A stretch of 64,000 nucleotides of DNA from Arthrobacter crystallopoietes. Lineage in GTDB: Bacteria > Actinomycetota > Actinomycetes > Actinomycetales > Micrococcaceae. This document shows, in pieces, positions 27,745 through 64,000 of this stretch. A program made the translations under genes and the position numbers. The stretch is taken from positions 1,984,001 through 2,048,000 of the forward strand of contig NZ_CP018863.1 of NCBI RefSeq assembly GCF_002849715.1, read 5' to 3'. The first letter of the stretch is position 1, and each line of letters starts with the position of its first letter. The notes beneath the pieces are model-generated. The model was not told the DNA's origin. It saw only the letters and a program-made list of their open reading frames with translations, and ran no database searches.

Positions 27745-29184
27745 ATGTCGGCCCAGCCCGAGACCCATAGCACCGCCTTCCAGACTTACCAGGACCTGCT
27801 GGCCGCAATCGCGCCGGCGGGGGAGTCCCGGCCGATTAAGGATCCGGCCACGGGTGAAGTGGTCGCCGAAGCCCCCGTCCACACCGCCGCAGATCTGGAT
27901 GCCGCCGTTGCCGCCGCCCGCGCTGCGCAGCCAGAGTGGGCTGCGCTGGGCCACGAGAAGCGCAGCGAGTACCTGAACCAGGCCGCGGACGCCATCGAAG
28001 CCAGTGCCGAGGCGCTCGCCGAGCTGCTCTCACGCGAGCAGGGCAAGCCGCTGAACGGACCCAACGCCCGCTTCGAGGTCGGTGCCTGCGCCGCCTGGCT
28101 GCGCGCCACGGCGTCGTTCGTCTTGGAGCCCGAAGTCGTGGTGGACGACGGCGAAAGCCATGCCGAGGTGCACTACCGTCCGCTCGGCGTCGTCGGCGCC
28201 ATCGGCCCGTGGAACTGGCCGATGATGATCAGCGTCTGGCAGCTCGCGCCCTCGCTGAGGATGGGCAACACGGTGGTGATGAAGCCGTCCGAGTACACGC
28301 CGCTGAGCGTGCTGGCACTGGCCGCGGTGATTAACCAGGCGCTGCCGGCGGATCTGCTGCACGTGGTTTCCGGCGGCCGCGAGGTCGGCGAGGCGCTGGC
28401 CTCCCACCCGGAGATCGACAAGGTGATGTTCACCGGTTCCACCGCCACGGGCAAGGCCATCATCCGTTCCTCCGCGGACACGGTGAAGCGGCTGACGCTG
28501 GAGCTCGGCGGCAATGATGCGGGCATCGTGCTCGAGGACGCGGATCCGAAGGCCATCGCGCAGGATCTGTTCTGGGGCGCGTTCATCAACACCGGCCAGA
28601 CCTGCGCCGCGCTCAAGCGTCTCTACGTCCACGACTCGCTCTACGACCAAGTCTGCGAGGAACTGGTCCAGGTCGCCCAGAACATGCCGATGGGCGTGGG
28701 GCTGGACGAGAACAACGTCCTTGGCCCGCTGCAGAACAAGGCCCAGTTCGACATCGTCGCGGACCTGGTCCAGAAGGCCAAGGACAGCGGCGCCAAGGTG
28801 CTGACCGGCGGCAACCCTGAGTCCGGCCAGCCCGGCTACTTCTACCCGACCACCCTCGTGGCGGAAATCGACAACGACAATCCGCTGGTAGCCCAGGAGC
28901 AGTTCGGCCCGGCGCTGCCGATCATCCGCTACAACACGGTCGACGAGGCTGTCGAAATGGCCAACGGGCTCGACGTCGGCCTCGGCGCCTCGGTCTGGTC
29001 CTCTGACCCGGCCAAGGCCCGCGAAGTCGCCGCCCGGATCGAGGCCGGCACGGTCTGGATCAACAAGCACGGCGCCGTTGACCCGCGCGTGCCGTTTGGC
29101 GGCGCCAAGCAGTCCGGCTACGGACTCGAATTCGGCGTCGCCGGCCTCAAGGCCCTGGGCACCCCGCAGGTGATCAGCCAGTGA
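27745..29184 (+). CDS. NAD(P)-dependent aldehyde dehydrogenase
   Basis: The protein has 479 residues, full length. Catalytic E253 (L-E-L-G-G-N) and C287 (N-T-G-Q-T-C) are present, as are P-W-N-W-P (155-159) and G-S-T-A-T-G (231-236). CAGGAG precedes the ATG. The stop overlaps the GTG start of the GMC oxidoreductase gene, so the two enzymes are translationally coupled: the GMC enzyme would oxidise an alcohol to the aldehyde, and this enzyme would make the acid. The pair resembles betaine-aldehyde/choline pairs, but no choline transporter or BetI regulator is near. Confidence 0.93.
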   Translation: MSAQPETHSTAFQTYQDLLAAIAPAGESRPIKDPATGEVVAEAPVHTAADLDAAVAAARAAQPEWAALGHEKRSEYLNQAADAIEASAEALAELLSREQGKPLNGPNARFEVGACAAWLRATASFVLEPEVVVDDGESHAEVHYRPLGVVGAIGPWNWPMMISVWQLAPSLRMGNTVVMKPSEYTPLSVLALAAVINQALPADLLHVVSGGREVGEALASHPEIDKVMFTGSTATGKAIIRSSADTVKRLTLELGGNDAGIVLEDADPKAIAQDLFWGAFINTGQTCAALKRLYVHDSLYDQVCEELVQVAQNMPMGVGLDENNVLGPLQNKAQFDIVADLVQKAKDSGAKVLTGGNPESGQPGYFYPTTLVAEIDNDNPLVAQEQFGPALPIIRYNTVDEAVEMANGLDVGLGASVWSSDPAKAREVAARIEAGTVWINKHGAVDPRVPFGGAKQSGYGLEFGVAGLKALGTPQVISQ

Positions 29185-55890: not shown

Positions 55891-57270
55891 ATGCTCGAGC
55901 CAATCGTCGCCTTATCGCTCTTTGTTGCTATCTTCGCGCTAGCCACTGTGCGCAAAGTCCACCTGGGCGTCATTATGTTCGCCTCCGCTGCCGGAGTTGG
56001 GATCTGGCTGGCAGGAATGGAGATGGACGACGTTATAGCCGGATTCCCCGTGTCTATCCTGGTGCTTCTCGTGGGAGTGACGTACTTTTTCGCAATTGCT
56101 CAAGCGAACGGCACCGTGGATAGGATCATCACGTTTGCCATTTCTCGTGTAGGTGACCGCGCGGCGCTTCTTCCGCTGGTGTTTTTCGGTTTGACGGCGG
56201 GGATCGCCGCCATGGGATCTCCTCTGGCTGGCCTGGTGATGACCCCAATAGGAATGCCACTGGCCAAGAAGTACGGCATAGACCGCATGCTAATGGGGTT
56301 GGCCATTGGTTGCGGCCTGAGTGCTGGGGGATTCGCCCCAACGAGCCTCTTTGGAATAGTGACTTATGGAACCGCACATTCTGTTGGAATCGATCTGAAT
56401 CCGCTTACCCTCTTTTCTATCGCGCTTGTTGCGAACCTGGTTCTCCTGCTTGCCGCCTACGTGATGTTCGGTGGATTGGGCCTACTACGCCGCCGGCACG
56501 CCGGACAGTTTGGTGATAGCCGGTTGCCGAATCTACGAGGGAAGGCGCCGCTGCCCGGCCATCCTTTTGAGCGCGAGGGCTTTGCTGAGCGGAGTCGACG
56601 CGCAGCGCAACAGGTTCAAGTCATCGACGACACTGTTGGCGAAACTACTCCTGAGCGGTTCACATGGGCGCAACGTACTACCGTACTTTGCATGGCAGGT
56701 CTTGTAGTGAGCGTCATTTTGCTGGCGATCATCGGCCTTGATCCGGACATCGGCATTCTCTGCTTCGCCTTCGCGACCGTTATGACGCTTGTTGATCCGA
56801 AAACGGGCAAGACTGCCGTCTCGAAGATTGATTGGTCAACGGTACTCATGGTGGGCGGCATCATCACCTTTGTAGGTGTCCTTCAGGAGATCGGGGCCGT
56901 GGACTTGCTTGGCGAAGCCGCCAGCCAGGCCGGCGCCCCCTTGGTCGCTGCACTCTGCATATGCATTATTGGCGGGCTAGTCTCGGCCTTTGCATCTACT
57001 ACAGGCATGCTTGCAGCACTCGTTCCGCTGGCCATTCCGTTGGTTGCTGATGGCAACATTGCTGGTTGGGCTGTCATCGCAGCGCTGGGCGTCTGCTCGT
57101 CGATTGTGGACGTATCGCCCTTCTCCACGGTCGGTGCGACGCTAGTCGCGACGGTGGACGAAGAGGAAAGGCCTCGGATTACCAAAGTATTGACGCGTTG
57201 GGGACTATCACTGGTTGTCGTCGGACCGGTCGCCCTTGTCGGCACACTCGTGCTGCCCACAATGCTTTAG
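55891..57270 (+). CDS. MatC/SLC13-like dicarboxylate permease
   Basis: The protein has 459 residues with about eleven hydrophobic segments. Its N-terminal part resembles the MatC (malonate/dicarboxylate carrier) family, with G-F-P-V-S-I-L-V-L-L-V-G-V-T-Y-F near 50-65, and the later V-S-A-F-A-S-T-T-G-M-L-A-A motif is typical of SLC13/ion-transporter proteins. AGAAGGGAAGAAGG precedes the ATG. It likely brings in a dicarboxylate that the following CoA-transferase activates. Malonate, succinate-like or other acids cannot be separated. Confidence 0.85.
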   Translation: MLEPIVALSLFVAIFALATVRKVHLGVIMFASAAGVGIWLAGMEMDDVIAGFPVSILVLLVGVTYFFAIAQANGTVDRIITFAISRVGDRAALLPLVFFGLTAGIAAMGSPLAGLVMTPIGMPLAKKYGIDRMLMGLAIGCGLSAGGFAPTSLFGIVTYGTAHSVGIDLNPLTLFSIALVANLVLLLAAYVMFGGLGLLRRRHAGQFGDSRLPNLRGKAPLPGHPFEREGFAERSRRAAQQVQVIDDTVGETTPERFTWAQRTTVLCMAGLVVSVILLAIIGLDPDIGILCFAFATVMTLVDPKTGKTAVSKIDWSTVLMVGGIITFVGVLQEIGAVDLLGEAASQAGAPLVAALCICIIGGLVSAFASTTGMLAALVPLAIPLVADGNIAGWAVIAALGVCSSIVDVSPFSTVGATLVATVDEEERPRITKVLTRWGLSLVVVGPVALVGTLVLPTML

Positions 57271-57291
57271 AACGCTGAACAAGGAGTCAGA

Positions 57292-58512
57292 ATGCCGTTG
57301 CAGGGAATTACTGTTATCGACTTGAGCCGCGCGCTCGCCGGACCATACTGCACCACGATGTTGGCCGATATGGGTGCCGAGATCATCAAAGTGGAAAGCC
57401 CCCGAGGAGGAGATCCGTCCCGTGCATGGCCGCCATTTGAAGGTGAGCATAGCTTGTACTTCGACTCGGCTAATAGGAATAAGAAGTCCGTAGCCATTGA
57501 TCTGTACACGATTGACGGGAAGGCTTTGCTGACCCGAATGCTTGAGAATGCTGACGTGCTGGTGGAGAACTACAAACTCGGAACGCTCGATGCGATGGGA
57601 TTCGGTCCTGAGGTGCTGCGCCAAATCAATCCAGACCTGATCCACATGTCTATCAACGCCTATGGGAATAAGGGACCGCTCATGACCAGGCCGGGGCTCG
57701 ACCAGGTTGTCCAAGGAATCTCCGGCTTGACCTCAGTCACAGGAGATGAGGATGGGTCTACTTACAGGGTCGGCCTGCCGATCGTCGACATTACCTCGGG
57801 TATGACCGCTGCCTTCGCCGTAGTCTCTATGCTCCTTGGCAGGGAACGAGGCAATCAATCCCGTGAGGCTTCTACTTCTCTTTTCGAGACTGCTCTGGCC
57901 CTGTCAGCATTTCAGGGCCAGTCAGCGCTCTCCCTCGGCGTCGCACCGACGCCCCAAGGTAACAATCATCCGAGCATCGCACCTTACGGTGCCTTCCCGA
58001 CAGCGACGGAACCTGTGATCATTGCAGTTTCGACCGAGCGCCACTGGTCGTCCTTTTGCAGTGTCATCGGTAGGACAGAACTGGCGGATGACCCGCGCTT
58101 CTCCACTGGTCGTACCAGATCGCTCCATCGGCAGGAGCTGACGGAACTGATCGAGGAGGTCCTGCGGCAGGAAGGGGCAGACGTGTGGATCGACGGTCTG
58201 AGCGCAGCGGGAATTCCGTGCGGTCCTATCTATGACTACGCCCAGGTGATGGACTGCGAGCAAACCCGGGCACTAGACATGGTGCAATCGGTTCAGCGAA
58301 GCGACGGTTCCGAGCTGCGTCTACTCCGCGGCCCGCTCAGCGTGGATGGTGTTCCTGTCTCAGTTCGAACGGCACCGCCGTCTCTCGGAGAGCACACGAG
58401 GGACGTCCTCGAGACCATGGGCATCTGCCCTGAACAGATTGAATACCTAGAGAACAGCGGGACCGTGCAAGCAGGGACGCGAGTGGCAGCAACGGCGGGA
58501 GCGAATCAATGA
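57292..58512 (+). CDS. Class III CoA-transferase (CaiB/BaiF family)
   Basis: The protein has 406 residues. D-L-S-R-A-L-A-G-P-Y and K-V-E-S-P-R-G-G-D near the N-terminus, V-A-I-D-L and the catalytic-Asp region G-L-D-Q-V-V-Q-G (about 141-148) are class III CoA-transferase features. It moves CoA from a donor thioester to a carboxylic acid. It starts 21 bases after the permease stop and overlaps the crotonase start by four bases. It presumably activates the imported acid to its CoA ester. Confidence 0.93.
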   Translation: MPLQGITVIDLSRALAGPYCTTMLADMGAEIIKVESPRGGDPSRAWPPFEGEHSLYFDSANRNKKSVAIDLYTIDGKALLTRMLENADVLVENYKLGTLDAMGFGPEVLRQINPDLIHMSINAYGNKGPLMTRPGLDQVVQGISGLTSVTGDEDGSTYRVGLPIVDITSGMTAAFAVVSMLLGRERGNQSREASTSLFETALALSAFQGQSALSLGVAPTPQGNNHPSIAPYGAFPTATEPVIIAVSTERHWSSFCSVIGRTELADDPRFSTGRTRSLHRQELTELIEEVLRQEGADVWIDGLSAAGIPCGPIYDYAQVMDCEQTRALDMVQSVQRSDGSELRLLRGPLSVDGVPVSVRTAPPSLGEHTRDVLETMGICPEQIEYLENSGTVQAGTRVAATAGANQ

Positions 58513-59336
58513 CAGCGCAAGCGTTACCCTTAGCCGCAAACGACGGGGCGACCGTAGACGTCACCGTCGAAGGAGACATTGCAACCGTAGTTTTGAACCA
58601 TCCGAAACGGCGTAATGCCCTCACAAAGGGGATGTGTCTTGGTCTAACGGAAGCCGTGGGCAGACTAGATGACGATCCGCAAGTCAAAGTTATCGCCCTC
58701 CGTGGTGCAAACGGCGACTTCTCCGCTGGGGCGGCATTGGATCAGCTCGATCACGTATTGTTTGACAAGGCTGATGAGGCACTAGGAACCGACCGTTTGA
58801 GCGAAGCAGACGCAGCAATCTGCTCCGTCCGAAAACCAACTGTGGCCTTGGTCGAGGGTATCTGTATGGGCGGAGGCTGGCAGATTGCGTCAGCTTGCGA
58901 CGTCCTGCTGGCGGCCGACGACGTCAGACTCGCTATCACGCCATCAAAGCTTGGGATCCTCTATCCCCGAGCCGGATTGGAACGGCTCGTCCGACGGGTG
59001 GGGGCAGACCGAGCCAAGTACTTGCTGTTCAGTGCGGAGGAGATTGGCCCGGATAAGGCCGCTGCATGGGGACTTATCACCGATCTGGTGGCTACGCATG
59101 AATTTGAAGAAGTTTCGATGTCATTCTTGCGAACCATCTCGCGACGGTCGCAATACTCCAATGTGACAATGAAGCACTTGATCCAAGCCGATGAGAGTCA
59201 AGAAAACGTAGAAAAGCGTTGGGATGCGGAGTGGTCACATTTCCCAGACAACGAGGATTTGGCTGCTGGACGAGCAGCCTTCATGGCGAAGGAGAGACCC
59301 GCGTTCACCTGGAGTCCCACTTCTACCCGGATCTAA
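58509..59336 (+). CDS. Enoyl-CoA hydratase/isomerase-family protein
   Basis: The protein has 275 residues, the usual crotonase length. G-A-N-G-D-F-S-A-G-A-A-L-D-Q-L near 63-77 and E-G-I-C-M-G-G-G near 117-124 form the oxyanion holes. The position of one expected catalytic Glu (Y-P-R-A-G-L-E near 156-162) favours a hydratase/lyase rather than a simple dehydratase, but assignment is uncertain. ATGA overlap with the CoA-transferase indicates coupled translation. It acts on the CoA ester made by that enzyme. Confidence 0.9.
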   Translation: MTAQALPLAANDGATVDVTVEGDIATVVLNHPKRRNALTKGMCLGLTEAVGRLDDDPQVKVIALRGANGDFSAGAALDQLDHVLFDKADEALGTDRLSEADAAICSVRKPTVALVEGICMGGGWQIASACDVLLAADDVRLAITPSKLGILYPRAGLERLVRRVGADRAKYLLFSAEEIGPDKAAAWGLITDLVATHEFEEVSMSFLRTISRRSQYSNVTMKHLIQADESQENVEKRWDAEWSHFPDNEDLAAGRAAFMAKERPAFTWSPTSTRI

Positions 59337-59546: not shown

Positions 59547-59852
59547 CTACCCCAGGTGTTCAAGATGGGCGCGGACCCTGGTTCGGTCTTCGTTGAGCCA
59601 GCCTTGCTTCCCGGCATACGAGATCATCCCGTCGAAGCCCTCTCTCCACTGGGTCAATTCGGCAGGCCCGCTGCGGCGAAGCCCCTCCACATCCAGCCAG
59701 GCGTGGTCGCCTTCCACCGTTCCCAGGCCGCTGGCCTGCAGCGCGGCAGAAATCCCATTCACATCCACGCCGTGAGCACGAACAGCCAGCTCGCGGAGGT
59801 TTTCAACGTCCTGCACGGAAGCTTCCCCGGCTGAACGGACCTCCACATACAT
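59547..59852 (-). CDS. Small conserved-context protein of unknown function
   Basis: The protein has 101 residues with no known domain: M-Y-V-E-V-R then helical, acidic, with a central G-D-H-A-W-L-D-V and H-L-E-H-L-G at the end. Its start overlaps the tautomerase stop by one base (TAATG-type), so it belongs to the operon. The sequence looks like a folded small enzyme or subunit, not a shadow frame. I recognise nothing; a partner protein for the tautomerase or dehydrogenase is possible. Confidence 0.7.
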   Translation of the reverse strand: MYVEVRSAGEASVQDVENLRELAVRAHGVDVNGISAALQASGLGTVEGDHAWLDVEGLRRSGPAELTQWREGFDGMISYAGKQGWLNEDRTRVRAHLEHLG

Positions 59853-60067
59853 TAGGCCCGCTCCTGTTCCAGCGCCGCCTGCTGCCGTTCCGCGATGGTC
59901 TGGTTCCCCTTGGACCAGTGCGTGGTGGGAACCTCACGGATAATCACCGTGGTGTTCTCGGGAAGCGCGCCGACGGATTCTTCCGCGGCCCGGTGCAGGG
60001 CAGCGGTCAGTTCCCGAAGCTGCTCCGGCGTACGGCCCTCGGCAATGGACACATCAATCAGTGGCAT
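59852..60067 (-). CDS. 4-oxalocrotonate tautomerase-family protein
   Basis: The protein has 71 residues and begins M-P-L-I-D-V; the Pro after Met is the catalytic base of the tautomerase family. The E-R-T/G-R-T-P-E-Q-L-R-E-L-T pattern and a later V-I-I-R-E-V-P (with the conserved Arg) fit the 4-OT group. It isomerises enol/keto forms of dienoic acids in ring-cleavage pathways. It lies nine bases downstream of the aldehyde dehydrogenase gene and overlaps the small unknown gene. Confidence 0.92.
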   Translation of the reverse strand: MPLIDVSIAEGRTPEQLRELTAALHRAAEESVGALPENTTVIIREVPTTHWSKGNQTIAERQQAALEQERA

Positions 60068-60076
60068 TCGTTTCTC

Positions 60077-61558
60077 CTATGCACGCATGACGAACGGGTC
60101 CGCTACTGGGCCCTCATCGGTGTTGATCCAGACGCTCTTCAACCGCGTGTACTCGTGCATGGACTCCAGCCCGTGCTCGATGCCCACGCCGCTGTTCTTG
60201 AACCCCTGCCGGGGCGACATCGGCGACATGGCGCGGTAGGTGTTGACCCAGACGGTGCCGGCTTCCAGACGGCGGCTCATCCGGTGCGCCCTGGCCAGGT
60301 TCTGCGTCCACACGCCGGCGGCGAGGCCGTACTGGGTGTCATTGGCCAGGCGCAGGACCTCTTCCTCAGAGTCGAAGGGCATGATGGCCGCGACCGGTCC
60401 GAAGATCTCCTCGCGGACCACGCGCATGGAATTATCGACGTCGGTCAAGACAGTCGGCGCGTAGAAGTAGCCGGGGAGGTCGATCTCCGGCCGGCCGCCG
60501 CCGGTCAGTACCTTGGCGCCTTCCGAGACGCCCAACTCAACGTAAGAGCCGACCTTTTCCTGCTGGGCAGCGAACGCCAGCGGACCGAGCTCGGTGCTGT
60601 CTTCGCGCGGATCGCCGATCACGATGCTCTTTGCCCGAGCGGAGACTTTCTCCAGCAGTTCGTCGTAGACGGACCGGTGGGCGAAGACGCGGCTGCCGGC
60701 AATGCAGGTCTGACCGGCAGCGGCGAAGATGCCGGCCACCACTCCCATGGCGGCATTCGAAATATTGGCGTCTTCGAACACAATGTTCGGGCTCTTGCCG
60801 CCGAGCTCCAGAGTGCATCCGATGAAGCGGGCTGCCGCGGATGCCGCGATGGCGGAACCGGTGGCGGTGGAACCGGTAAAGGAAATCTTGGCAATCTCCG
60901 GATGGTCCACCAGCGCGGCGCCGGCCTCGGCGCCGAGGCCGGTCACTACATTGACCACGCCGTCGGGGAACCCGGCCTCGACGGTCAGCTCGGCCAGCCG
61001 CAGCACGGTACGGGACGTGTATTCGGACGGCTTGATGACCACGGTGTTGCCGGCCGCCAGCGCGGGGGCAAGCTTCGACGTCGTCAAGGTCAACGGGGAG
61101 TTCCAGGGGGTGATGGCGCCGACCACGCCGAGCGGCTCGCGCTGGGTGTAATTGAGGACGGCGGGATTCATCGTCGGAATCTGGCTGCCCTGCACCTTGT
61201 CCGCCAGCCCGGCGTAGTAGTACAGGTACTCGGGCAGCGTTGCCAGCTGCCCGCGCATTTCACGCAGCAGTTTGCCGTTGTCCGCGGTTTCCATCTGCGC
61301 CAGTTCCTCGGCATGCTCGCCGACGAGGTCGCCCAGCTTGCGCAGGAGATGGCCGCGCTTGGTCTGGCTCAGGTCGCGCCAGAGCGGATTCTCGAAGGCG
61401 GCGCGGGCAGCGCGGACGGCCGTGTCGACATCGGCCTTGCTGCCGCGGGCGGCGGCGTAGAGGACCTCGAGGGTGGCCGGGTTGGTGCTCTCGAAATAGG
61501 CGCCTTCGGCCGGGGTGGCCCATTTGCCGTTGATGAAGTGCTCGTATTGCCTAGTCAT
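60077..61558 (-). CDS. Aldehyde dehydrogenase
   Basis: The protein has 493 residues from the ATG at 61558. Catalytic Glu (L-E-L-G-G-K-S-P) and Cys (A-A-G-Q-T-C) are present, with P-W-N-S-P for the coenzyme site. Its start overlaps the end of the alpha/beta hydrolase gene by eight bases. It resembles semialdehyde dehydrogenases of aromatic meta-cleavage and related pathways, and with the tautomerase and hydrolase suggests that a ring-opened aldehyde is oxidised. No ring-cleaving dioxygenase is visible in the window. Confidence 0.93.
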   Translation of the reverse strand: MTRQYEHFINGKWATPAEGAYFESTNPATLEVLYAAARGSKADVDTAVRAARAAFENPLWRDLSQTKRGHLLRKLGDLVGEHAEELAQMETADNGKLLREMRGQLATLPEYLYYYAGLADKVQGSQIPTMNPAVLNYTQREPLGVVGAITPWNSPLTLTTSKLAPALAAGNTVVIKPSEYTSRTVLRLAELTVEAGFPDGVVNVVTGLGAEAGAALVDHPEIAKISFTGSTATGSAIAASAAARFIGCTLELGGKSPNIVFEDANISNAAMGVVAGIFAAAGQTCIAGSRVFAHRSVYDELLEKVSARAKSIVIGDPREDSTELGPLAFAAQQEKVGSYVELGVSEGAKVLTGGGRPEIDLPGYFYAPTVLTDVDNSMRVVREEIFGPVAAIMPFDSEEEVLRLANDTQYGLAAGVWTQNLARAHRMSRRLEAGTVWVNTYRAMSPMSPRQGFKNSGVGIEHGLESMHEYTRLKSVWINTDEGPVADPFVMRA

Positions 61559-62303
61559 GGATATCTCGACTCGATTCTTCGATGAACTCGATGATGATGC
61601 GTGCCAGTTCCGCCGGGCGCTGCACGGGAAGCATGTGCCGGGTATTAGGTACGACGGCGGTGCGTGCTCCCGGAATTGCCTCACCTAAACGCCTGGTCAT
61701 CTCCGGCGTGGAGCCCGGGTCCTGGTCTCCGGTCACGGCCAGGGACGGTACCGCGATGGCCCCAAGCTCGGCCCCGATTTCGGCGTCTGCTGTGGCAAAC
61801 ACACGGTACGCGTGCAGGTAGGAGCTCGGATCGTTGGCCAGCAGCGTCCGGCGGACACCGGCCACCGTGGCCGGATCCGTGCCGGCATCGGCCGGGAACC
61901 AACGCTCGATGGACGCCTCCACGCTCCCGGAGAAGTCCGCGGCGGCATTCTGCAGCCGGGCATCCACGGACTCAGCCTCCTGGAGTGTCCGAAGGCAGAC
62001 CGAACTGACGCTGGTGAGGGTGGCCACCCGCTCCGGCTGGAACCGGGCCAGATGCTGTGCGATCAGCGCCCCCAGCGAAAACCCCACCAGGTGGGCTCGC
62101 GCTGGGAGCCGGTTTCCGACGTCGTTAGCCAGGTCGCCAAGCGAAACTTCCCGTTCCAGCGGCGGCCGGCTGCCGTGGCCGGGCAGATCCAGGGCAAGGA
62201 CCTCACGATCGCTGGCCCGGCGTACTTCGTCCCGGAACTGGTCCCACATGGTGCTGTCCAGCCCCACACCGTGGAGCAGGACGATGGGCAGTTTCGCGTC
62301 CAT
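61551..62303 (-). CDS. Alpha/beta hydrolase
   Basis: The protein has 250 residues. The catalytic triad is visible: S76 in G-F-S-L-G, Asp in G-D-Q-D and His in N-T-R-H-M; H-G-V-G near 11-14 forms the oxyanion loop. It resembles 3-oxoadipate-enol-lactonase and C-C bond hydrolases. It overlaps the aldehyde dehydrogenase start by eight bases and lies two bases after the DUF1185 stop, so the operon is tightly packed. Possible substrate: a ring-opened ester, lactone or diketone. Confidence 0.92.
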   Translation of the reverse strand: MDAKLPIVLLHGVGLDSTMWDQFRDEVRRASDREVLALDLPGHGSRPPLEREVSLGDLANDVGNRLPARAHLVGFSLGALIAQHLARFQPERVATLTSVSSVCLRTLQEAESVDARLQNAAADFSGSVEASIERWFPADAGTDPATVAGVRRTLLANDPSSYLHAYRVFATADAEIGAELGAIAVPSLAVTGDQDPGSTPEMTRRLGEAIPGARTAVVPNTRHMLPVQRPAELARIIIEFIEESSRDIHD

Positions 62304-62305
62304 GG

Positions 62306-62857
62306 CTACTGTTCCGTTGACAGGGCTGCCAACCGCTGCTGCGGACGGCCCTGGGACGCGGCGGCGAGGGCAATGACGATCTCGCCCGGGTGCGGTGCGT
62401 CGGCCAGACGGACCTCAATGCTCTGGTGGTGCGAGCGGATGGTCGCGTCGGTGATGTGCTTGAGGGGGATGTCGAACGTGACTCCGGCCGGTCCGCGCTT
62501 TTCCACGGCCGGCAGCAGGGTGGTGGCGTTGGCCGCGTTGCGGAAGTGGTCGCCGAACTTCAGCGTGTGGATCAGGGCCGAACCATGCTCGATCTCGCCG
62601 TCCAGGCCGACAATCGCGGCCTTGCCGTAGGCTTCGACGTTCCCGCCCAGTGTTTTGACCACGCGCGGTGCGAGCAGTTCGCCGATGTCGGAGGCTACCG
62701 CGTCGATGCCTTCGGTCAGGTCTTCGACGAAGCCCTGTCCGTGCCAGGGGTTGTCGATGATGGCGGCGACGACGACGACGCGGGCGTTAGGTTCGACGGG
62801 CCGGCCGCCCTCGGTGAGAGTCTCTTCAACCAGGGTGACGATCTTGCGGACGTTCAT
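62306..62857 (-). CDS. DUF1185 'amino acid synthesis' family protein, copy A
   Basis: The protein has 183 residues: M-N-V-R-K-I-V-T-L-V-E-E, I-I-D-N-P-W-H-G, E-A-Y-G-K-A-A-I-V-G and G-E-I-E-H-G-S-A-L-I-H-T. This is the DUF1185 family, whose structure has a chorismate-mutase-like fold with unproven activity. The conserved Glu/His (G-E-I-E-H) and Lys (Y-G-K-A-A) suggest an active site. It is adjacent to a second, diverged copy with the same motifs, overlapping by four bases. Confidence 0.9.
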   Translation of the reverse strand: MNVRKIVTLVEETLTEGGRPVEPNARVVVVAAIIDNPWHGQGFVEDLTEGIDAVASDIGELLAPRVVKTLGGNVEAYGKAAIVGLDGEIEHGSALIHTLKFGDHFRNAANATTLLPAVEKRGPAGVTFDIPLKHITDATIRSHHQSIEVRLADAPHPGEIVIALAAASQGRPQQRLAALSTEQ

Positions 62858-63483
62858 GCGGAGGCTCCTTCAAGGGTGCGGGAAGTTACTGCAGGGTCTG
62901 TTTTACGGTCGCCGATTCGGGCGTGCGGACGCGGTCCGGTTGAGGCTGCGGCAACGACGACGATCTCGTCCGCCCGGGGCCCGTCCGGAATCCGGGCGGT
63001 TATGGTCTGGTAGTGGCTGCGGGTTGCCGCGTGGGTCTTGTGCCACATCGGCACGACCAGCGGTTGCCCGGCTTCGGCCCGGTCGTCGGCAAAGCAGATG
63101 ATGGACGAGCCGTCGAGGTACTCCCGGACGAGGTTGCCAAAGAACGGAGTGTGGATGAGTGCACCGGCGTGCTCGATCTCGCCTCCGGTGCCGACGATGG
63201 CGGCCTTGCCGAAGGCCTCGATCTCCTCGACACCGCCGAGCCCGTCAATCAGACGGTCGGTAAGAGCCTTGGCGAGGTGCGGAGCGATCCGCTGGGCCTC
63301 GGGTCCGAGATCGGTGTCCGGCGCGGTGCCTTTCCAAGGGTTGGCAATAACGGCGGCTGCGGTGGCCCGCAGGGCCGGCACCGGCGGCATGGAACCGTTC
63401 TCTACCAGGATCTCCTCCTGGTAGTACACGATCTTGCGGATGCCGGCGGCGGCGTCGGGGCTGGGCTGCTCAATGCTAGTCAA
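62854..63483 (-). CDS. DUF1185 'amino acid synthesis' family protein, copy B
   Basis: The protein has 209 residues and begins with a longer N-terminus (M-T-S-I-E-Q-P). Its motifs parallel copy A: I-A-N-P-W-K-G, E-A-F-G-K-A-A-I-V-G, G-G-E-I-E-H-A-G-A-L-I-H-T, and a final V-V-V-A-A-A. The two proteins probably form a mixed oligomer or act on related compounds. The stop of this gene overlaps the copy A start (ATGA). It lies next to the luciferase-like monooxygenase gene, overlapping it by eight bases. Confidence 0.9.
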   Translation of the reverse strand: MTSIEQPSPDAAAGIRKIVYYQEEILVENGSMPPVPALRATAAAVIANPWKGTAPDTDLGPEAQRIAPHLAKALTDRLIDGLGGVEEIEAFGKAAIVGTGGEIEHAGALIHTPFFGNLVREYLDGSSIICFADDRAEAGQPLVVPMWHKTHAATRSHYQTITARIPDGPRADEIVVVAAASTGPRPHARIGDRKTDPAVTSRTLEGASA

Positions 63484-64000
63484 AGTGGGGCTTCACTTTC
63501 TCGGAGAACAGCTCGAGGCTGCGCATTGCCTTCTCGTGCTTCAGGCCGGGATGCGTGGTCCAGAGCATCATGTGCTCAAGGCCGACCTCGCGCTTCAGCT
63601 CGTGGATCTTTTCGGTGACGAATTCGGGCGTGCCGACCAGCATGTTGCGGTCCATCAGGAGATCGAAGTCCAGCTTGTGCGCGTCGGTGAGCTCTTCGCC
63701 CTCTTCCATCAGGTTCGACAGGCCGCGCCAGTGGGTGATCCATTTGTAGGTGTTCAGGACCGCTTCCTCGAACTCTTCGCGGGCCTGCTCCATTGTGTCC
63801 GCCACGTAGACATCGCGGACCAGGGCGATGCCCTCGCCGAGCGGAACCTCGCGGCCCTGGGCCTTGGAGGCATGTTCGCGGTACAGCTCGAAGCGGCCCT
63901 TGAGCGCGGACACCGGCGGCAGCCAGAAGATGCCCTGCACGCCGGTTTCGGCGGCGCTAATGATGGAGCGGGGCGTATCGATGACCTGCCACAGCGGGAG
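63476..64000 (-). CDS. LLM-class flavin-dependent oxidoreductase, C-terminal part (5' end outside window)
   Basis: The frame is open to the right edge, so the gene starts beyond 64000; 174 codons plus stop are present. Features of luciferase-like (LLM) flavin monooxygenases include V-R-D-V-Y-V-A-D-T-M-E-Q-A-R and L-V-G-T-P-E-F-V-T-E-K-I. It would use reduced FMN or F420 to oxygenate or reduce a substrate. As the first visible gene of the operon it may catalyse the initial attack. The N-terminal flavin-binding region is not visible, so FMN versus F420 cannot be told. Confidence 0.9.
   Translation of the reverse strand, partial: LPLWQVIDTPRSIISAAETGVQGIFWLPPVSALKGRFELYREHASKAQGREVPLGEGIALVRDVYVADTMEQAREEFEEAVLNTYKWITHWRGLSNLMEEGEELTDAHKLDFDLLMDRNMLVGTPEFVTEKIHELKREVGLEHMMLWTTHPGLKHEKAMRSLELFSEKVKPHFD

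What the first reader, a model, noticed from the sequence alone, without database searches (positions are those of the whole stretch)
59547..64000. Tightly coupled operon with paired DUF1185 proteins, LLM monooxygenase, hydrolase, aldehyde dehydrogenase, tautomerase and an unknown small protein
Seven genes overlap or nearly touch (eight-base, four-base, two-base, eight-base, nine-base and one-base junctions), so they are one translational unit. The enzymes fit ring or chain oxygenation, hydrolysis, aldehyde oxidation and tautomerisation, but no ring-cleaving dioxygenase is seen and both DUF1185 proteins lack a known reaction. The two copies keep the same G-E-I-E-H and G-K-A-A motifs. This is the strongest candidate here for an undescribed catabolic system, possibly with DUF1185 acting on an amide or N-containing ring-opened intermediate.
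Basis: partly seen in the sequence, partly recalled or inferred. Interest (0 to 1): 0.7.

Follow-up and report, generated by a model that had tools for sequence, protein, structure and literature searches.

The report
Trigonelline-type ring-opening operon, swapped oxygenase
A soil bacterium's operon looks like a known pathway that opens the ring of plant compounds such as trigonelline, but it carries an unrelated ring-opening enzyme and a pair of mystery proteins where the known pathway has one.

Summary
The seven genes are real and spaced as described. The oxygenase starts outside the window, at 64594. Upstream lie a GntR regulator, a divergent SnoaL-flavin reductase and a BCCT (betaine-type) transporter.

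The set is not an undescribed system. An Acinetobacter plasmid cluster annotated tgnA/tgnB/tgnC (trigonelline) has the same parts: DUF1185, alpha/beta hydrolase, flavin reductase, luciferase-like monooxygenase (LLM), aldehyde dehydrogenase. The window's dehydrogenase is 46% identical to that TgnC; its DUF1185 proteins are 43-47% identical to the cluster's DUF1185.

The LLM differs: 25% identical to TgnB, in another clade. Arthrobacter dokdonellae has the same module, and a permease 80-86% identical to those of two window-type clusters, but a TgnB-type LLM. Simplest reading: two non-orthologous LLMs open the same imported N-methylpyridinium carboxylate, probably trigonelline.

DUF1185 is a conserved tandem pair. 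Copy b lost a histidine that copy a keeps in 8 of 12; two Sulfitobacter pairs show a similar split, suggesting a hetero-oligomer.

Verdict: new variant of a known kind. Substrate and DUF1185 chemistry are inferred, not shown.

The parts
63476..64000 (-). Luciferase-like monooxygenase (proposed ring-opening oxygenase); gene runs on to its ATG at window position 64594
   Evidence: Frame in the host stretch L009:9476-10594; Pfam Bac_luciferase E 7.5e-49; 25% to PK01 TgnB; separate clade
62854..63483 (-). DUF1185-a (AA_synth), TTG start
   Evidence: Pfam PF06684 E 7.6e-55; a-clade 100/99
62306..62857 (-). DUF1185-b (AA_synth)
   Evidence: Pfam PF06684 E 1.7e-60; b-clade 97/97; PDB 2qtp E 3.6e-38
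61551..62303 (-). Alpha/beta hydrolase, TgnD-like (proposed enamide hydrolase)
   Evidence: Pfam Abhydrolase_6 E 1.5e-23; 26% to the PK01 hydrolase
60077..61558 (-). Aldehyde dehydrogenase, TgnC-like
   Evidence: Pfam Aldedh E 4e-175; 46% to PK01 TgnC, 35% to PK01 SSADH
59852..60067 (-). 4-OT-like tautomerase, 71 aa with start Met
   Evidence: Pfam Tautomerase 51.6 bits, cut-off 22; sequence
59547..59852 (-). Small orphan protein, 101 aa
   Evidence: 13 relatives including its own entry, no Pfam; no PDB fold match at E <= 0.001

Best explanation
An actinobacterial variant of the trigonelline (tgn) pathway. SHOWN: gene order, families, conservation and kinship to annotated tgn genes. INFERRED: an N-methylpyridinium carboxylate, most likely trigonelline, enters through the BCCT transporter. 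The SnoaL-flavin reductase supplies reduced FMN to the LLM, which opens the ring at a C-C bond next to the ring N-CH unit and gives an N-methylformamido enal/hydroxybutyrolactone. The TgnC-like dehydrogenase oxidises this to (N-methylformamido)methylene-succinate. The alpha/beta hydrolase splits the enamide, releasing methylamine, formate and a 2-formylsuccinate-level product that loses CO2 to give succinate semialdehyde, which a dehydrogenase encoded elsewhere in the genome oxidises. The DUF1185 a/b pair (probably one hetero-oligomer) and, where present, the tautomerase are proposed to act at the enol/formyl-acid stage (tautomerisation or decarboxylation). The GntR protein controls the divergent promoters through a tandem operator. 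The chemistry of the steps is taken from the tgn pathway as I recall it.
For: Acinetobacter PK01 cluster with annotators' names tgnA, tgnB, tgnC has the same set of parts. Window ALDH 46% to TgnC against 35% to SSADH, DUF1185 43-47%, reductase domain 42%. A. dokdonellae: window-type module and permease with a TgnB-type LLM. BCCT in the window, a second genome of the genus and 3 of 9 relatives; a glycine betaine ABC system beside the A. fabrum cluster. Genes that I read as methylamine assimilation beside the Aquabacterium cluster. Own genome has SSADH candidates, best 46%.
Against: The LLM is not a TgnB orthologue (25%), and its nearest outgroup in the tree, the Peribacillus and Nonomuraea LLMs, includes one in another setting (acyl-CoA dehydrogenases, CoA transferase). 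The hydrolase is only 26% identical to PK01's, and its tree is weak. No SSADH in the operon; no close N-methylglutamate synthase-like protein in the genome (31-36% partial matches). The window's BCCT scores below the NCBIfam cut-off for glycine betaine transporters (534.8 against 650). The four Streptomyces loci lack the tautomerase. The A. dokdonellae chromosome was not searched for a window-type LLM. The tgn names in PK01 are annotation, not an assay that I saw.
Confidence: 0.6

Rival explanations
1. Same chemistry class, other substrate: the LLM opens a different pyridine or pyridinium (N-methylisonicotinate, N-methylpyridinium, pyridine, homarine) whose products join the same dehydrogenase and hydrolase steps.
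For: The LLM clade differs from TgnB, and most window-type clusters looked at have no SSADH that I recognised nearby (by eye). A review passage says that 4-carboxy-1-methylpyridinium is degraded in soil to methylamine and CO2, with succinate and formate among fragments of paraquat breakdown (PMC6689968). A pyridine pathway in Arthrobacter sp. 68b ending in succinate semialdehyde is recalled, not seen.
Against: A. dokdonellae keeps the permease and downstream module with a TgnB-type LLM. BCCT favours a betaine over neutral pyridine. A passage holds that TgnA/TgnB is unlikely to act on homarine for steric reasons (PMC8269262), though this speaks about TgnB, not this LLM.
Confidence: 0.25
2. An unrelated oxygenation pathway that only borrows tgn-like dehydrogenase, hydrolase and DUF1185 proteins, for example for another N-heterocycle or a Rut-like ring.
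For: LLM enzymes have many chemistries. DUF1185 also occurs beside non-LLM catabolic genes: 6 of the 14 DUF1185 plasmid loci that I fetched. The Rut pathway also combines an LLM, a flavin reductase and an alpha/beta hydrolase (recalled).
Against: No RutA model is among the 23 NCBIfam families matched by the LLM, and the reductase is far below the RutF cut-off (79.3 against 254.75 bits). The exchange of LLM types within one conserved module points to a shared intermediate.
Confidence: 0.13

Closest known systems
Trigonelline (tgn) cluster, Acinetobacter sp. PK01 plasmid NZ_CP094644.1; A. baylyi ADP1 pathway recalled
   Same: GntR, DUF1185, alpha/beta hydrolase, flavin reductase, LLM, aldehyde dehydrogenase together
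   Different: One DUF1185, not two; LLM of another clade; NCS1 permease instead of BCCT; SSADH in the cluster; no tautomerase; reductase lacks the SnoaL domain and has another C-terminal part
Arthrobacter dokdonellae pDCT5 cluster (NZ_CP029643.1)
   Same: GntR, two DUF1185, hydrolase, dehydrogenase, tautomerase, SnoaL-flavin reductase and the tandem GntR site, 53-79% identical proteins
   Different: TgnB-type LLM at the operon's end; NCS1 permease; riboflavin kinase, NUDIX and SSADH genes
Rut pyrimidine pathway (recalled)
   Same: LLM, flavin reductase and alpha/beta hydrolase in one pathway
   Different: Neither RutA nor RutF cut-off met
hcd 7-hydroxycoumarin genes of Pseudomonas mandelii
   Same: Contains HcdD, a DUF1185 protein called homologous to TgnF (passage in PMC7913881)
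   Different: Other enzymes and substrate; no effect of HcdD could be observed there (same passage)
Pyridine (pyr) cluster of Arthrobacter sp. 68b (recalled)
   Same: Flavin-dependent ring opening towards succinate semialdehyde, as I recall
   Different: Sequence not available here; no comparison made

Membership tests
Trigonelline (tgn) pathway | TgnB-type LLM oxygenase | tested here: not met
   25% to PK01 TgnB; separate clade; no close TgnB in the genome, best 31%
Trigonelline (tgn) pathway | Flavin reductase component (TgnA) | tested here: inconclusive
   Reductase domain 42% over 146 aa, but fused to SnoaL and without TgnA's C-terminal part
Trigonelline (tgn) pathway | TgnC-type dehydrogenase | tested here: met
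   46% to TgnC over the whole length against 35% to SSADH
Trigonelline (tgn) pathway | TgnD-type hydrolase | tested here: inconclusive
   26% to the PK01 hydrolase, E 1e-27; shared G-x-x-D-P-x-S-T and R-H-M stretches; weak tree
Trigonelline (tgn) pathway | DUF1185 (TgnF-type) protein | tested here: met
   47% and 43%, but two copies in their own clades
Trigonelline (tgn) pathway | SSADH (TgnE) in the cluster | tested here: not met
   None in the operon or its upstream genes; 46%, 43%, 43% candidates elsewhere
Trigonelline (tgn) pathway | Acts on trigonelline | not testable with these tools
   Needs an assay
DUF1185 / AA_synth (PF06684) | Pfam match above cut-off | tested here: met
   203.9 and 185.5 bits, cut-off 27
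4-OT tautomerase family | Pfam match and N-terminal proline (catalytic role recalled) | tested here: met
   51.6 bits, cut-off 22; Pro after the start in the window and all seven relatives printed
Malonate semialdehyde decarboxylase | Sequence kinship | tested here: not met
   Best such chain (2aag) at E 0.6
Rut pyrimidine pathway | RutA/RutF models over cut-off | tested here: not met
   No RutA match listed; RutF 79.3 of 254.75 bits
Pyridine (pyr) pathway | PyrA-type oxygenase | not tested
   No reference sequence found; the pathway is recalled

The most novel reading that the evidence does not exclude
A second, independently recruited family of flavin oxygenases directly opens N-methylpyridinium rings and is interchangeable with TgnB inside one conserved module. 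In this module DUF1185 works as an obligate a/b hetero-hexamer that converts the reactive formyl-succinate/enol product (a decarboxylase or tautomerase), which would give a defined reaction to a family whose structures have been known since 2010 without one.
Probability: 0.25. Interest if true: 0.65.

Novelty: new variant of a known kind. Interest (0 to 1): 0.45.

Why it matters
If true, it extends a plant-betaine catabolic route to Micrococcaceae and Streptomyces, shows that ring-opening LLM enzymes can replace one another within a pathway, and offers a simple setting (two paired DUF1185 genes inside a defined pathway) in which the unknown function of DUF1185 can be tested.

Tried and rejected
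Entirely new system: rejected after the annotated tgn cluster was found. LLM as TgnB orthologue: rejected. Rut-like pyrimidine pathway: rejected. Tautomerase as malonate semialdehyde decarboxylase: no sequence support. The convergent block 55891-59336 (transporter and enoyl-CoA hydratase named by eye, CoA transferase by Pfam) as part of the system: no match within the 17-kb stretches of the 9 relatives, so left out; the Peribacillus LLM relative L028 does lie near a CoA transferase 37% identical to it. Small protein: best AlphaFold model pLDDT 85.1, the other four 59-70, so the model is uncertain; no PDB fold match at E <= 0.001. Hydrolase tree: too weak for orthology.

Full report
Observation. 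The LLM runs past the window end; in the host genome its start is at window position 64594. Upstream, on host contig C1, lie a GntR/FCD regulator on the same strand (2049350-2048643), then divergently a SnoaL-flavin reductase fusion (2049447-2050418) and a BCCT transporter (2050460-2052082). A pair of TTGCATRCA sites 21 bases apart lies at the start of the regulator gene. The same pair occurs in 5 of the 12 loci scanned (L009 = host, L036, L014, L015, A. dokdonellae L025); five loci have no site, and L016 and L021 have sites but no such pair. In 200 simulated (order-1 Markov) versions of the 20-kb host stretch, one strand, none had a pair 18-24 bases apart.

Conservation. Nine loci fetched by LLM similarity (Arthrobacter, Sinomonas, Specibacter, Streptomyces) all carry LLM-DUF1185a-DUF1185b-hydrolase-dehydrogenase in that order, plus flavin reductase and GntR nearby (9 of 9). 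A second genome of the same genus carries the whole set including BCCT, tautomerase and small protein. Tautomerase was found in 5 of 9 and the small protein in 1 of 9. The trait is patchy: 3 of 10 genomes of the genus (own included, E <= 1e-100) and 2 of 396 in a phylum sample (own included, E <= 1e-120). The second of those, G272, has an LLM 51-52% identical, with a single DUF1185, a hydrolase and an Ldh_2 gene. The protein database holds 1352 LLM relatives at E <= 0.001; the 120 listed are 62% identical or more, mostly actinobacterial where named, some from Bacillaceae. DUF1185 occurs nowhere else in the host (2 matches) and in 0 of 14 control genomes.

Relation to tgn. A plasmid search with DUF1185-b found 387 records, of which two listings showed 60 rows each; I fetched chosen hits. 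Acinetobacter sp. PK01 has GntR, DUF1185, hydrolase, tgnA, tgnB, tgnC, a cytosine permease and an SSADH, the tgn names being its annotators'. Window against PK01: dehydrogenase 46% to tgnC (35% to SSADH), DUF1185 a/b 47/43%, reductase domain 42%, hydrolase 26%, LLM 25%. Two rhizobial clusters have the same gene set; the Rhizobium sp. CCGE532 LLM is 72% identical to PK01 TgnB. Of 14 loci fetched by a DUF1185 hit (not a random draw), 8 have an LLM gene beside it, one of them interrupted by an insertion sequence, and 6 do not.

Oxygenase exchange. In a 30-row LLM tree the five TgnB-type rows form a group with 100/100 support, and the window-type rows fall in another group (13 rows, 100/99). Several outgroup rows have long branches, so deeper placement is unsure. 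The window-type group sits nearer to a Peribacillus and a Nonomuraea LLM than to TgnB; the Peribacillus one lies among acyl-CoA genes, which does not help the trigonelline reading. A. dokdonellae pDCT5 carries the window-type module: ALDH 79%, DUF1185 a/b 70/79%, hydrolase 53%, reductase 62%, tautomerase 71%, GntR 69%. Its LLM is of the TgnB group (50% to PK01) and stands at the end of the operon. No plasmid record holds an LLM 60% or more identical to the window's; the A. dokdonellae chromosome was not searched. Its dehydrogenase lies within the Micrococcaceae branch of window-type clusters (99/98; its exact place there 88/83). Its NCS1 permease is 80% and 86% identical to those of L014 and L015, which use the window-type LLM. 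So one transporter type and one downstream module go with two unrelated LLMs; exchange of the LLM around the same substrate is the simplest reading (inference).

Transport and substrate. Of the nine relatives, six have an NCS1 permease (Pfam on L014, L016, L017, L021; L015 and L022 by identity) and three have BCCT. The window and L036 have BCCT next to the reductase, where L014 has NCS1. The A. fabrum cluster lies next to a glycine betaine ABC system. A compound carried by betaine-type and nucleobase-type transporters fits an N-methylated heteroaromatic acid such as trigonelline (inference); the window's BCCT is above the BCCT subfamily cut-off but below the one for glycine betaine uptake. The Aquabacterium cluster has glnT and glutamate-synthase-like genes just upstream, in my reading methylamine assimilation, which fits methylamine release. 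The host has only partial 31-36% matches to that glutamate-synthase-like protein, so its methylamine may be used another way. The step chemistry is recalled from Perchat et al. 2018, which is not held. What I saw in print: a passage that TgnA/TgnB opens the ring (PMC8269262) and a passage that TgnF stimulates TgnE-dependent succinate semialdehyde oxidation, with no such effect found for HcdD (PMC7913881).

DUF1185. a and b form separate clades (100/99 and 97/97) with TgnF-type proteins as a third (99/96); the bootstrap had not fully settled. By my alignment the GEIEH motif supplies two glutamates and a histidine of the conserved interface in BB2672 (salt bridges Glu90-Arg176 and Glu92-Arg172; His93, His98, His144 and His174 near a large cavity; PMC2954203, parts 1-3 of 5 read). 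All of these are kept in a, b, TgnF-type and Sulfitobacter copies except His174: b has Gln in 12 of 12, a has His in 8 and Asn in 4 of 12 (the four Streptomyces), single copies have His in 7 of 7. In two Sulfitobacter tandem pairs, one of them beside a gene named 6-hydroxynicotinate reductase, the other in a stretch with mostly hypothetical names, the first copy keeps His and the second has Leu. Both Sulfitobacter pairs and the window pair overlap by 4 bases. The Sulfitobacter copies branch apart from a, b and TgnF (100/99), so this looks like a repeated division of labour within a hetero-oligomer (inference). A role at the formyl-acid stage would suit trigonelline and nicotinate settings (2-formylsuccinate and 2-formylglutarate; the latter pathway recalled), but DUF1185 also occurs where this does not obviously fit.

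Verdict. A well conserved variant of a known pathway, with a genuine twist (a non-orthologous oxygenase) and a useful handle on a family of unknown function. The substrate assignment rests on neighbours and relatives; no enzyme test exists here.

Noticed in passing
L032:7414-8576 and L030:6775-7940 (Sulfitobacter plasmids): Tandem DUF1185 pairs with a 4-base overlap; in L032 beside genes named 6-hydroxynicotinate reductase and UPF0280, so DUF1185 pairs also occur in what looks like nicotinate catabolism.
   Followed up: partly
host C1:2049324 and 2049345 (L009:11324, 11345), just outside the window: Tandem TTGCATRCA sites 21 bases apart at the start of the GntR gene, shared with L036, L014, L015 and L025; likely operator.
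   Followed up: yes
L009:11447-12418; L017, L019, L022: SnoaL domain fused to the flavin reductase here and in L014, L015, L036 and A. dokdonellae; called as two separate frames in L017, L019 and L022.
   Followed up: partly
L014:4032-4613, L017:15255-15842, L022:15220-15801: Isochorismatase-family hydrolase gene next to the NCS1 permease; role unknown.
   Followed up: no
L027:11331-13791 (Acidiphilium plasmid): The LLM gene of a tgn-like cluster is in two pieces around an IS110 element.
   Followed up: no
L025:6924-7873 and L029:13392-14324: A. dokdonellae has separate riboflavin kinase and NUDIX genes; the C-terminal part of PK01 TgnA looks NUDIX-like by eye.
   Followed up: no
L051:1214-5540 (Aquabacterium): glnT, glutamine amidotransferase, glxC-like and glutamate-synthase-like genes directly upstream of a tgn-like cluster; read as methylamine assimilation.
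   Followed up: partly
window 55891-59336: Convergent block of a transporter, a family III CoA transferase and an enoyl-CoA hydratase; absent from the stretches of the 9 relatives.
   Followed up: partly
window about 28180-28541 and host C1:1220056-1220417: Two aldehyde-dehydrogenase-like matches with the same score and query range, perhaps a recent duplication.
   Followed up: no
host C3:99631-102725: The genome's best TgnB-like LLM (31%) lies beside an aldehyde dehydrogenase on the 245-kb contig C3.
   Followed up: no
window 59547-59852: Orphan 101-aa protein with 12 relatives besides its own entry, restricted as far as seen to Arthrobacter-like sources; no family or fold match.
   Followed up: yes
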